DNA of 64,000 nucleotides from Hyposmocoma kahamanoa. Its lineage: Eukaryota; Arthropoda; Insecta; Lepidoptera; Cosmopterigidae. Below are positions 3,701-8,100 of this stretch, one piece after another (the first letter of the stretch is position 1; each line of letters starts with the position of its first letter). Both the position numbers and the translations under genes were made by a program. The stretch covers positions 23,081,600-23,145,599 of the forward strand of contig NW_020654810.1 in the NCBI RefSeq assembly GCF_003589595.1, in the 5' to 3' direction. Below the pieces are notes generated by a model. It saw nothing but the letters and a program-made list of their open reading frames with translations. It was not told where the DNA came from and did not search any database.

Positions 3701-5180
3701 TTATCCATTCTATGTGTATTACATGACACTTAGGTAAATATCAACTATGCGATCATTATTCGTCCAATCTACTTAACAGAATATCCCTATATTATAAGAA
3801 CCCTCACTCTAACCATTGTAGGATAGAGCGGACCACCACCTCCAATCCGCCAAATTAGACCGGCTTGGCAGAGACAAGTAGGAGACGGAAGATGTGTGTC
3901 ACGATTAGAGCAAGTGGAAGGCTGTAGTTTCTGCCTGCCTTGAAGTGTACAATATGCATGTGTACTCTGCCTAATCACAATTGTATATTGTGTAATGTAT
4001 TTTCACAGGACGTAGGTACAATAAAGGTGTAATGGTCAAAGTGACTGCGTAGCCTACTTTACAATGTTTTATCTAAAATTTCTTCGAGTGGTACGTATGT
4101 ATCTAAATTGAAGAAGGGTATATACACATTACAAAACTAGCTATTACAGTTGATTGCTATTGATCGATCATTATCACGTTCTTATCAAGTTTTATTACAA
4201 TTTTAAATTAATAACTACCTTTGTGAGCATGATTGGCGCGACGGTGTTGACTGTAAGATTGTCCAACAATTGTTCCCTTTTCACCAGCGCCAGTTTGGTG
4301 AACTTGGTGGTCACCCCAGCGTTGTTCACCAACAGGTTCAGTCCGTTACCGCCCACCACTTTTTTGATCTGAGACGATATTTCGTCAAAACTCGACGTGT
4401 TTGTTACATCTGTTAAGTTTAAAAAAAATGTTTAGGTGCTATGCTGATAAAAACCACAATAAAGTTTTAGAGCAATGAATATAATCTTTTAATTACCTAA
4501 ATGTAAAATGTGAAGGTTTGCATTCTCTTGTTCTAATTGTTTCAGTTCCTGAAATTCATAACATTGTTTTATTAGAAATTGTTTACGTAAAAAAAAACGC
4601 GCAACGGCCGTGACCTATTATTCCCTGTCCTGGGGATTTACTTCCGCATCAAGAAGATTAGTGCGCTTGACTCAAATGTAATAACACGTGTGAATTAAGG
4701 TGAATTGTAACAAAAAAAATCGTCATTATAATAGTTAATTTCATTAAAATGAAAATTGTACACATTCTATGAAGTCATCAAAAAAGTATACGTCATGGAG
4801 GCGTATAACGTTTTCAAGGTCGATGACGTCAGCTGACTGTCAGCCATAGTCGAATGCCATCTTTGTCCCACACTCGCGTTAACTACAAATAGAGTTTTTC
4901 CGTCTTCACGCTGTTATTTTAACGTGAGATATTGTGCATTTTGGTGTCTTTATTAATTATATTAATTAATAATTGTGTAAAAGTGTGAATTGTTCAGTTT
5001 AGTGATAAAACATCAGTATAATGGCACCTATAGGTAAGTTATAAAACTGACACATACCTCCGAAGTATTCCGATTCCGGCAAGTAGCGAATATTTGGTAT
5101 CCTTCATTCTTTTTCGTGAGATATTTCACCATCCCGAGCCCCAGACCTCTGTTGGCACCGGTTATTAGTACAGATTTCAT
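496..5180 (-). CDS. sni: sniffer-like short-chain dehydrogenase/carbonyl reductase (5 exons, complete)
   Basis: Classical short-chain dehydrogenase/reductase, 246 aa, predicted to be a cytosolic NADP(H)-dependent carbonyl reductase. Exons in reading order are 5180-5058, 4548-4497, 4409-4219, 2453-2304 and 720-496 (stop TAA at 498-496). All introns are GT-AG and all phases close. The protein opens with MKSVLITGANRGLGLG, holding the Rossmann TGxxxGxG motif. It has NNAG near residue 91, the active-site serine in INMSSILGS, and YRCSK, which fits catalytic YxxxK. HPGWVRTDMGG follows, and it ends in YDGSELPW. This architecture and C-terminus match Drosophila sniffer and the C-factor-like SDRs annotated in Lepidoptera; the exact orthologue assignment is inferred. 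It is transcribed away from thioredoxin reductase, and its first intron holds the cytosolic TrxR start. Introns carry repeats but no coding break. Confidence 0.9.
1101..1286. mobile_element. foldback MITE-like element (GGGGGTCTAC ends)
   Basis: The ends are inverted: AGGGGGTCTACTCTCGTCCG at the left, and ATCGAGGGTAGACCCCC at the right, which is the complement of the same sequence. Inner parts (CCGAAACAATTA, AATTAAAAGAC) also pair. A related half-copy sits at 36397-36508 inside an RTE fragment. No target duplication was recognised, so the superfamily is unknown. It lies in sniffer intron 4. Confidence 0.6.
1307..1765 (+). mobile_element. dispersed 'AACCGACTTC' repeat, full-length copy
   Basis: It begins CTCAGTAAAGAGTACTAAAA, then AACCGACCTCAAAAGTACG, and ends TTTTTTGAAGTCGGTTAAAAA, so the ends form an imperfect terminal inverted repeat. 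Other copies in the window are 22504-22974 (minus), 29123-29353, 29560-29645 (minus, end only), 34240-34310 (end only) and 56822-57017 (minus). The short open frame inside (DDFLQNEMGPLWKYPLSNK) recurs in the 22.5 kb copy, but only as part of the repeat. From memory this type is very common in lepidopteran introns; its superfamily is not established here. Confidence 0.7.
2304..2453 (-). CDS. sni: sniffer-like exon 4 (catalytic Ser and YxxxK)
   Basis: 150 bp, exactly 50 codons, with acceptor GGCAG and donor GTACTT. It carries INMSSILGS (catalytic Ser region) and YPYRCSK (catalytic Tyr and Lys). Confidence 0.9.
2454..3415. other. sniffer intron 3, 5' part, AT-rich
   Basis: Long A-rich stretch (2515-2720) and no supported feature. 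The segment at 2782-2796 resembles the small-subunit rRNA 530 loop by chance only. Confidence 0.5.
3421..3677. repeat. 86-bp tandem repeat, three copies
   Basis: Units start TTACAACGGTTGTGTTTATT at 3421, 3507 and 3592 and end in TTTGGATTTTTTACYTTTCA. Copies 2 and 3 are nearly identical, and copy 1 differs around the A-tract. The array lies in sniffer intron 3. Confidence 0.9.
4219..4409 (-). CDS. sni: sniffer-like exon 3 (NNAG motif)
   Basis: 191 bp. It encodes DVTNTSSFDEI, then LNLLVNNAGV (the SDR structural NNAG motif) and NTVAPIMLTK. Donor is GTAGTT, phase 0. Confidence 0.9.
4497..4548 (-). CDS. sni: sniffer-like exon 2
   Basis: 52 bp exon between acceptor TTTCAG and donor GTAATT. It encodes ELKQLEQENANLHILHL and ends in phase 1; its last G joins AT of exon 3 to give Asp. 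Confidence 0.85.
4824..4833. promoter_or_regulatory. CRE/Maf-type site upstream of the cytosolic TrxR start
   Basis: TGACGTCAGC contains a perfect CRE (TGACGTCA) and extends into the GC flank of a CRE-type Maf recognition element. It is followed directly by TGACTGTCAGC, another pair of GCTGA/TCAGC half-sites. It lies about 190 bp before the cytosolic TrxR ATG and within sniffer intron 1. CncC/Nrf2-Maf control of thioredoxin reductase is established in animals; its use here is inferred. Confidence 0.4.
5021..5033 (+). CDS. Trxr: TrxR alternative first exon, cytosolic form (M-A-P-I)
   Basis: ATGGCACCTATAG followed by a strong donor GTAAGTT. Thirteen coding bases, phase 1, join AT of exon 2 to give M-A-P-I-D-G-T. 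It lies in the first intron of the opposite-strand sniffer-like gene. The start is chosen because it is the only ATG with an in-phase donor next to it. Confidence 0.8.
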
Positions 5181-8100
5181 TGTGTAATTCTGTGGTCCTT
5201 TAATAGTTTCTTTATTGCAATAGTTTTTCTAATAAAAATATAAGTTTTTCCATACAACCTATTTACATGGGCACCCGTACTGTACTTTAATGTGAAGTTT
5301 CTTGTCTCTGTCCTAGTTATTTGTCAAAAATGACAATCATTCGTAATTTTGTAAGGGTAAATTTTTTTATACGACAGCCAAAACAAGTCTCGAATTTCTT
5401 GATAATCGCTCGACGAGGCTATGTGAAGGGTAAGTCTAAATGGCTTAATCAAAATTCGACATGCAACTCGGAGAGCGGTACGTCGTATAACCTCACTTTG
5501 CTGAGCGTGCTACTTACGTACCAGCATTTTAATCTGTTCTCTTTTAACATAATACCTAGTCACAGGAATAGCCTATGAACATTTGATGACGTGTGGTTTT
5601 TTTTAAATTTACGAGCATTGAAAAGTACAAATTTATCCACTTGGTTTTTTTACCTTTGCCTCAATGTCTTCCCTGTTCACTATTTTAATTTTCAACTATT
5701 ACATTAAATCCCCTCTACAAAGCAAAAGTTAGATCTCCTACTTAATATTGAACTTTTGATGACAACAGGCGGATGGATCTGTTGTAGCCGTAAAACCAAG
5801 ATGGTTGCTCCCATTAATGCTCTCGACAGAGGTATGGTTATGTGATTTATTGGGGGTTGTGTTGTATAGGCTTCTTTGTAACTCACATGCACCGCACATA
5901 CACTTGTCTGTAAAACACATGCTGATGGCATAACACATATTGTAGATGGAACATTCGACTATGATCTGGCAGTCATTGGTGGTGGGTCTGGAGGGCTCGC
6001 ATGCGCAAAGGAGGCTGTGAATCATGGAGCCCGTGTTGCGGTGCTCGACTATGTGACGCCCTCTCCACAGGGCACCAAGTGGGGACTTGGAGGCACTTGT
6101 GTTAATGTTGGATGTATACCGAAGAAGTTAATGCACCAGGCTGCATTACTTGGAGAGAGCATACACGTAAGTAATTTTATTTTATTACATTAATAAGAAA
6201 TTAATTGCTTCAAAATGTGTTTTTATCCATTATTGTATGTGAATATTGAAGTCTTTGCTTTGCTTAGTTGTTTATACCTCTGGATAAAGTATTTGAAAGA
6301 ATTTGGTCAAAGTCAAGTGTTATCATTATCATAAAACTAAAGTATATTTCTGCATTTTGAAGCAGTCAATTGAAACAATTTATCTCCAGAGCTTCACCAA
6401 GTACTGTTCTTACAGTTTAGTTTTTGATTATAGCATTTGGTAAGTGGAACCAATACCCTGGCCTTCCCTGAGTCCTGTCATCCTATCCTTACAACTTGGA
6501 TTACACCTGAAAGAGGGTAGCAATTTCTATCTTTAACTTTCCTTGTAATCTTGATTATCTTTTTGGCTGTGTATTTATAACATTGTTGTAGATTTTTTTA
6601 CGTTGTAACATTATTGTAGGTTGATAAAGATATAAGTATAATATACTCTCATAAGTTCCTAATATTGAAGTTATATGTCATTGAATTACAATTATATGGA
6701 TGTCGGGTCCGCGCTAAAAAGTGTCCGAACTTTTAGGGCGTTAAAATCGTATACAGAGCGTCATTCACGCTTTAGTCTTTGTTTGTTCGACTGACAGCGA
6801 AGCAAGCAAAATTAGACAGTACTGCGACGACATTACAATTTAAATTCAACGTTTTAGCTTTTTCATATTCCTTTACATGTTACTACGTTTAAATAGGTTG
6901 ACTTAAGACATTTTTTTTGTGGTTTTTGTATTAGACCCGTCGTCCATTTATTTGTACGTCAATTTTATAGGTAGTTAAATCAGACTTAAATTTGACAAGC
7001 CTAATTTCTGACAACCATTCATCATATTTGAAATTGTAGCAGATTTGAAATATCTCACCAAATATCTGCTGTCCACTTAAATGTTTACCGAAATGTTTAT
7101 TATTTTTCCAAAGAAATAATAAAAAAAAATCCTAAAAAGAGAATTAATTGGTGAACATGCTTACAATATTGCACCCCTCATGGAACAATCGCATAAGTGG
7201 AGATACATCTAACATGTCTATTGCTCCATTAGATACAGAAAAATATAATGCACATCCTCTCCAATTCTTGTAACTATCTGCAATATTAGACGATAGATTT
7301 ACAGGAAATTAATATTAAATTACTTTTTTCACATAACTCCACTGATGCCATTCTTCCATGAGGGATGTGAAGATGAGTATGTAGAATAGGTACTTTAGGT
7401 AGTATGCACCAAAGCACTAACCAACTATCTACATGCCTTGTTACTTTTGAATTGGCTAGATGTGGTAGTGTATATTGTAGAAAATACCTACTAGATTTTT
7501 CGTTGCCTCTATGTGTAGAATAACTCACTTTGATTAACTGTAACCTTTAGGGAAATTTATCAGAGTAGCGTATTTTCAGTTTAGTACTTCTTGATTTGTA
7601 GTTCGTATCAAAAACCTTGCATCAATGAGTTATATTTGTATATGAACAAGATGTACATACAAAACGGTTGGGTTCATGTAGTCCAATTCCAAAAATGTCA
7701 TACTACGCGAATGTCTAATTATCCGTATAATCCATCCAACTGTGCCCATATCTAATTTCACGAATGTTCAACTACGCGAATGCCTTTTCTGCTTTTAATA
7801 AACGTAACTTCCGAGACTTCCATTGCGACTAATCGTAAAATTGTAGTGCATATATTGTACCTGCTTCTCATATAATAGCAAGCAAAAGAAAGAAAGTACG
7901 AAAGCACTTTTCACACAAAGAAATGTTCTAGGTCATTCAGAGCATTTCTCACCGCTTTATAATATTCTTTTATAATATGTTGAGTGTGTGCGTTATTTAT
8001 TTATTTATTTATTTATTTATTTTATTAAATGCATCTTTCGACTTTCACTTTTATATAAGGACACTTATCATACATGTATGAAACATGCATGTAAAATGTT

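What the first reader, a model, noticed from the sequence alone, without database searches (positions are those of the whole stretch)
4497..6166. Two redox genes interleaved head to head, with two TrxR first exons placed around the sniffer start
Seen: TrxR exon 1a (5021-5033) lies in intron 1 of the opposite-strand sniffer-like gene, while exon 1b (5330-5429, basic presequence) lies 149 bp upstream of the sniffer ATG. Both exons end in phase 1 and join the same exon 2. Known: Drosophila makes mitochondrial and cytosolic TrxR-1 from alternative first exons, and sniffer is a carbonyl reductase protecting against oxidative damage. From memory, Trxr-1 and sni both map to cytological region 7D of the Drosophila X, so the pairing could be ancient. 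Inference: shared or mutually interfering promoters couple quinone/carbonyl detoxification to thioredoxin supply.
Basis: partly seen in the sequence, partly recalled or inferred. Interest (0 to 1): 0.75.

Follow-up and report, generated by a model that had tools for sequence, protein, structure and literature searches.

The report
Sniffer gene nested inside thioredoxin reductase
In this moth the antioxidant gene sniffer sits backwards inside the start region of the thioredoxin reductase gene, and the two genes are linked in many other insects, but no evidence yet shows that they control each other.

Summary
Both genes are intact: TrxR on the + strand (5021-38491, ending SCCS), sniffer on the - strand (CDS 5180-496). 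Matching NCBI proteins identify the moth Hyposmocoma kahamanoa. A cassette exon lies at 5769-5831, and an exon of NCBI-predicted isoform X7 lies at 220-291, beyond the sniffer 3' end. For that isoform all of the sniffer CDS is nested backwards in a TrxR intron.

The pairing looks old. Of 43 insect species with both proteins and contig lengths in my capped search lists, 39 have a TrxR and a sniffer on contigs of identical length (Lepidoptera 16 of 20, Hymenoptera 20 of 20, one fly, one flea, one cockroach). One contig is only 25 kb; two species have consecutive locus tags. In print, Drosophila sni's 5' UTR lies in a Trxr1 intron, and a P element there lowered sni but not Trxr1 mRNA (PMC11684763). 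That speaks against tight coupling.

I favour physical interlocking with separate promoters over a shared regulatory switch. A directional switch, in which sniffer transcription opposes cytosolic but not mitochondrial TrxR, remains untested.

The parts
5058..5180 (-). sniffer coding exon 1 (ATG at 5180)
   Evidence: GT donor; assembled protein identical to NCBI LOC113237243
4497..4548 (-). sniffer coding exon 2
   Evidence: GT-AG, in frame
4219..4409 (-). sniffer coding exon 3
   Evidence: GT-AG, in frame
2304..2453 (-). sniffer coding exon 4
   Evidence: GT-AG, in frame
496..720 (-). sniffer coding exon 5 with stop
   Evidence: AG acceptor, in frame to ...ELPW; TAA at 498-496
220..291 (+). 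TrxR exon of NCBI-predicted isoform X7 (TNARRLKPDSGLRTKTVKRVLSI), beyond the 3' end of the sniffer CDS; the upstream exon with its start codon is outside the window
   Evidence: exact peptide match to P0002 at 222-290, AG acceptor and GT donor
5021..5033 (+). TrxR exon 1a, cytosolic-type start MAPI, inside sniffer intron 1
   Evidence: MAPIDG N-termini in other Lepidoptera
5330..5429 (+). TrxR exon 1b, mitochondrial-type presequence
   Evidence: identical in NCBI isoform X3 P0001; 21 of 47 TrxR rows that I took as lepidopteran match my pattern for such an N-terminus
5769..5831 (+). TrxR cassette exon 1c (GGWICCSRKTKMVAPINALDR), spliced after 1a
   Evidence: AG/GT sites and in-frame translation; same peptide type in Choristoneura P0008, Loxostege P0024, Bombyx P0036 and P0038; no transcript seen for this species
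5946..6166 (+). TrxR common exon 2 (FAD site, CVNVGC)
26948..27308 (+). TrxR exon 3
28667..28895 (+). TrxR exon 4
31017..31104 (+). TrxR exon 5
33763..34013 (+). TrxR exon 6
35594..35785 (+). TrxR exon 7
38362..38491 (+). TrxR exon 8, ends SCCS-stop
5181..5329 (.). 149-base space between the sniffer ATG and the mitochondrial-type TrxR ATG; would hold both 5' UTRs and any divergent promoter, unless the UTRs overlap or are spliced
   Evidence: transcription starts not mapped

Best explanation
An old, interlocked pair of redox genes. Sniffer, an SDR carbonyl reductase, lies on the opposite strand inside the 5' region of the multi-start TrxR gene. The cytosolic-type TrxR start (1a) lies in sniffer intron 1, the mitochondrial-type start (1b) 149 bases upstream of the sniffer ATG, and a further TrxR exon beyond the sniffer 3' end. 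Shown: the gene structures, the nesting in this moth (one isoform being an NCBI model), and linkage in other insects. Inferred: each gene has its own promoter(s), the main reason the pair stays together is that a chromosome break between them would cut one transcription unit, and any co-regulation is secondary.
For: Complete in-frame models of both genes. NCBI proteins of the same species match exon 1b, exon 220-291 and sniffer. Tight cases: a 25,102-base contig in Trichomalopsis (tags TSAR_009950 and TSAR_009952), consecutive tags in Odynerus (KPH14_005617/005618) and Polistes exclamans (M0804_007226/007225), and 260,214 bases in Eumeta. In Drosophila the sni 5' UTR lies in a Trxr1 intron, and a P element there lowers sni but not Trxr1 mRNA (PMC11684763).
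Against: Contig identity is inferred from equal printed lengths, and 22 of the 39 contigs exceed 10 Mb (my count; flea 87.7 Mb, cockroach 137.7 Mb), which shows linkage but not adjacency. In Scirpophaga the tags differ by 103 (ACJJTC_008370/008473) although the length is the same. 4 of 43 species did not match. In Arctia and Pieris brassicae a second sniffer row lies on another contig. No relative's DNA could be read, so the exact interleaving is seen only here and, in part, in print for Drosophila. Why the pair persists was not tested.
Confidence: 0.6

Rival explanations
1. Functional co-regulation: the 149-base space is a bidirectional promoter firing sniffer and mitochondrial TrxR together, so that aldehyde removal and thioredoxin supply rise together.
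For: Start codons only 149 bases apart on opposite strands; related roles of the two enzymes (recalled); linkage is conserved.
Against: Transcription starts not mapped; no consensus TGACNNNGC site in 4560-5945; the P element in the Drosophila sni 5' UTR left Trxr1 mRNA unchanged.
Confidence: 0.2
2. Isoform switch by transcriptional interference: sniffer transcription crosses the cytosolic start (1a) but not the mitochondrial start (1b), while 1a transcription crosses the sniffer start region; so cytosolic TrxR alternates with sniffer plus mitochondrial TrxR.
For: The geometry: 1a inside, 1b outside, the sniffer transcription unit. Opposite-strand nested and host genes can interact in C. elegans, though there the nested gene induced its host (PMC12274878, abstract).
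Against: No expression data here. The Drosophila insertion did not change Trxr1 mRNA, though isoforms are not separated in the passage read. In human, overlap of genes at their 5' ends was not found to lower their expression (PMC8076222, abstract).
Confidence: 0.12
3. Linkage is only a by-product of slow chromosome evolution and carries no constraint of its own.
For: Lepidopteran chromosomes are conserved as blocks (recalled), so whole-chromosome matches there say little.
Against: A 25-kb contig and consecutive tags in Hymenoptera, a 260-kb contig in a moth, and interleaving in Drosophila.
Confidence: 0.08

Closest known systems
Drosophila sni / Trxr1 locus
   Same: sni 5' UTR lies inside a Trxr1 intron (PMC11684763; passages and section 6 read); Drosophila sniffer 1SNY is the closest solved relative; Trxr gene products with locations set by alternative splicing are cited in PMC2614494 (passages)
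   Different: The Drosophila exon layout could not be read here; the TrxR exon beyond the sniffer 3' end and the cassette exon are shown only for the moth
Opposite nested gene pairs (e.g. C. elegans ceh-10 in polq-1, PMC12274878, abstract seen)
   Same: A gene on the opposite strand inside a host intron
   Different: Here the host has several alternative starts around and inside the nested gene; no effect on the host has been shown
Bidirectional (head-to-head) gene pairs (PMC6585903, start of abstract in the listing)
   Same: Two starts on opposite strands well within 1 kb, judged by start codons
   Different: Only one of several TrxR starts (1b) has this divergent geometry; 1a is inside sniffer; initiation sites not mapped

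Membership tests
Insect TrxR-1 (large thioredoxin reductase, TGR subfamily) | Whole-length match above the curated cut-off of TIGR01438 | tested here: met
   681.9 bits against cut-off 475.85, for P0002
Insect TrxR-1 (large thioredoxin reductase, TGR subfamily) | CVNVGC site and C-terminal SCCS | tested here: met
   Read in the assembled protein; the motifs as defining features are recalled
Insect TrxR-1 (large thioredoxin reductase, TGR subfamily) | Cytosolic and mitochondrial forms from alternative first exons | tested here: inconclusive
   Sequence and NCBI isoforms fit; localisation and transcripts not testable. Against: the amphipathic moment of the presequence is no better than shuffles (5382 of 10000 as high). 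It has 7 K/R and no D/E in 33 residues, as do 9 of 368 open ATG frames of the window, this one included if counted
Sniffer-type SDR carbonyl reductase | Full-length similarity to Drosophila sniffer, SDR family | tested here: met
   1SNY chain residues 21-267 over all 246 residues, E 9.9e-82; PF00106 114.8 bits against cut-off 26.6
Sniffer-type SDR carbonyl reductase | TGxxxGxG, NNAG, catalytic S and YxxxK | tested here: met
   TGANRGLG, NNAG, INMSSILGS and YRCSK read in the protein; motifs recalled
Opposite nested gene | Whole gene inside one intron of a host on the other strand | tested here: met
   Sniffer CDS 496-5180 inside TrxR intron 292-5945 of isoform X7. Limits: the host start exon is outside the window, the isoform is an NCBI prediction, and sniffer UTR ends are unknown
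Bidirectional promoter pair | Transcription starts on opposite strands within 1 kb | not testable with these tools
   Only start codons are known (149 bases between them)

The most novel reading that the evidence does not exclude
The interleaving, kept since early winged insects, works as a cis switch. Sniffer transcription crosses and silences the cytosolic TrxR start inside its own intron while sharing a divergent promoter with the mitochondrial TrxR start. Cells thus alternate between cytosolic TrxR and a mitochondrial-TrxR-plus-sniffer state.
Probability: 0.1. Interest if true: 0.75.

Novelty: new member of a known kind. Interest (0 to 1): 0.42.

Why it matters
Two antioxidant genes appear linked across moths, wasps, a fly, a flea and a cockroach, and are entangled at least in this moth and, by print, in Drosophila. 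That makes a tractable test of whether such entanglement is kept by regulation or simply because rearrangements would break a gene. It also warns that insertions in sni can lie in the Trxr gene and the reverse, which matters for reading Drosophila genetics of neurodegeneration and oxidative stress. The moth gene further suggests that insect TrxR has more N-terminal forms than the cytosolic and mitochondrial pair.

Tried and rejected
ARE/CncC-type sites: 12 TGACNNNGC matches in the window, fewer than the shuffle mean of 17.47, and none in 4560-5945; not used as evidence. A CRE palindrome TGACGTCA at 4824 lies 197 bases before exon 1a, but 20 of 100 shuffles give as many matches in the window. 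An initiator-like TCAGTT at 4994 precedes 1a; such a short match is expected by chance in a stretch this long (my estimate, no shuffle run). The presequence amphipathic moment is not above shuffles. One scan of viral contigs, with sniffer only, found no relative. That would put both coding regions on one short contig, but equal lengths among many short unnamed contigs can be chance, so it is not counted.

Papers linking sni and Trxr: no paper. The listings showed no title or abstract on the pairing, and I did not open those papers, except PMC2614494 (passages, for isoforms), PMC12274878 and PMC8076222 (abstract and outline). One search found PMC11684763. One search was a species search.

Rows dropped before the 39-of-43 count: rows without a species name or without a contig length (for example Leptinotarsa, present in both lists), and species in only one list. 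Each list shows only the best 120 proteins. I copied species and lengths by hand into. Danaus plexippus and D. plexippus plexippus were merged (a mismatch). The four mismatches (Danaus, Loxostege, Plutella, Spodoptera frugiperda) may be different assemblies of the species, judged from names and tags only.

After the one check the system asked for I mended: the cytosolic residue count (494, not 495), the plain sentence, the statement on contig sizes, the second sniffer rows, the scope of paper and viral searches, and the reading of several abstracts.
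Full report
What is there. The window carries an intact thioredoxin reductase gene on the + strand and an intact sniffer gene on the - strand. TrxR: exon 1a 5021-5033 (MAPI plus one base) or exon 1b 5330-5429 (33 residues plus one base) joins 5946-6166, 26948-27308, 28667-28895, 31017-31104, 33763-34013, 35594-35785 and 38362-38491, with GT-AG introns, giving 494 or 523 residues ending SCCS (the lengths printed include the stop). 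Sniffer: 5180-5058, 4548-4497, 4409-4219, 2453-2304, 720-496, 246 residues. Both proteins match their families over their length.

Whose genome. The sniffer protein is 100% identical to NCBI LOC113237243 of Hyposmocoma kahamanoa. TrxR isoforms X3 and X7 of that species match the window, apart from the first piece of X7, which is not in it; the contig length printed for these three proteins is 25,902,338 bases. A genome of this moth, which has aquatic larvae, is described in PMC11373647 (abstract and outline seen).

Exon 1a lies in sniffer intron 1 (4549-5057), 24 bases from sniffer exon 1 on the other strand. Exon 1b starts after a 149-base space upstream of the sniffer ATG.

NCBI-predicted isoform X7 (P0002) has a different N-terminus. 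Its second piece, TNARRLKPDSGLRTKTVKRVLSI, is found exactly at 222-290, in an exon 220-291 with AG and GT borders. Its first piece, MDLTPLCSFPEDCNRL, is not in the window, so the start exon must lie elsewhere, presumably to the left. The intron 292-5945 then contains the entire sniffer coding region. A pattern C-x5-C-[NSD]-[RK]-[FL], which I derived by eye from such N-termini, occurs in 5 of the 210 TrxR N-termini examined, from five genera of Lepidoptera (Hyposmocoma, Helicoverpa, Pieris, Papilio, Bombyx), and in no other of the 333 proteins held. That suggests the form is real, with the caution that the pattern is after the fact. A cassette exon at 5769-5831 encodes GGWICCSRKTKMVAPINALDR; similar peptides follow MAP[IV] in Choristoneura, Loxostege and Bombyx.

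How old the pairing is. No insect DNA outside the window could be read, but the protein lists print the length of the longest contig for each protein (best 120 proteins per list). By order (my sorting): Lepidoptera 16 of 20, Hymenoptera 20 of 20, Diptera 1 of 1 (Condylostylus), Siphonaptera 1 of 1, Blattodea 1 of 1. 22 of the 39 contigs exceed 10 Mb (my count) and show linkage only. The tight cases are Trichomalopsis (25,102 bases), Eumeta (260,214), Cephus (489,546), and consecutive locus tags in Odynerus and Polistes exclamans. Against tightness: the Scirpophaga tags are 103 apart, though tag order need not be map order. In Arctia and Pieris brassicae a second sniffer row lies on another contig. 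For Coleoptera, Hemiptera and other orders no species had both lengths, so they are untested.

Drosophila. Hu et al. 2024 (PMC11684763; passages and section 6 read) state that sni EY20992 has a P element in the 5' UTR of sni that also lies within an intron of Trxr1, that sni mRNA fell by 36.1% in homozygotes against heterozygotes, and that Trxr1 mRNA did not change. So the interleaving is already in print for one species, in passing. I found no paper on its conservation (searches), but the library lacks most subscription papers; Botella 2004, cited there, I did not see.

How it most likely works. Shown: structure, nesting of the CDS for one predicted isoform, linkage. Inferred: separate promoters, and physical interlocking as the main reason for conservation. 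The Drosophila insertion is the only functional evidence that I saw and speaks against strong coupling. It does not separate Trxr isoforms in the passage read, so the directional switch stays open: sniffer transcription crosses 1a but not 1b, and 1a transcription crosses the sniffer start. Regulatory motif scans gave nothing clearly above chance.

Verdict. A correct and useful observation: a real, apparently old, interlocked gene pair. It is ordinary in kind (hundreds of opposite nested genes are reported in C. elegans, PMC12274878, abstract), with an unusual depth of apparent conservation. Coupling is unproven.

Noticed in passing
P0259-P0317 and others; window 5769-5831: A further TrxR N-terminal class with a Trp-x-Cys-Cys or Cys-x-x-Cys motif near basic residues: GGW[ILM]CCSR in moths, SWCLxCREKPQTxDSDSSD in bees and wasps, AWLICCEKSQ in ants. 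My loose pattern finds 40 of 210 N-termini, some of them unrelated. It could be an S-acylated or extra-dithiol form of TrxR (guess).
   Followed up: partly
window 6434-6514 and 17842-17934: NCBI isoform X3 (P0001) inserts 59 residues from these two stretches between exons 2 and 3; possibly a spurious or non-functional splice form.
   Followed up: partly
window 8939-11411: 30-base inverted repeats, 90% complementary, enclose 2,413 bases with reverse-transcriptase-like fragments read by eye; looks like a DNA transposon with a retroelement inside, in the TrxR intron 6167-26947.
   Followed up: partly
window 12073-12148, 31469-31544, 57718-57793, 58106-58181: Four tRNA matches (three Thr, one Ser); the first two sit in similar flanks, by eye in the open-frame lists, so they may be tRNA-derived interspersed elements rather than tRNA genes.
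   Followed up: no
window 3421-3678: 85-base unit repeated three times at 98% in sniffer intron 3.
   Followed up: no
window 12417-13382: Open frame of 321 residues resembling a non-LTR reverse transcriptase, by eye.
   Followed up: no
names: Many insect sniffer orthologs are named C-factor or C-signal in public databases, which hides them from name searches.
   Followed up: no
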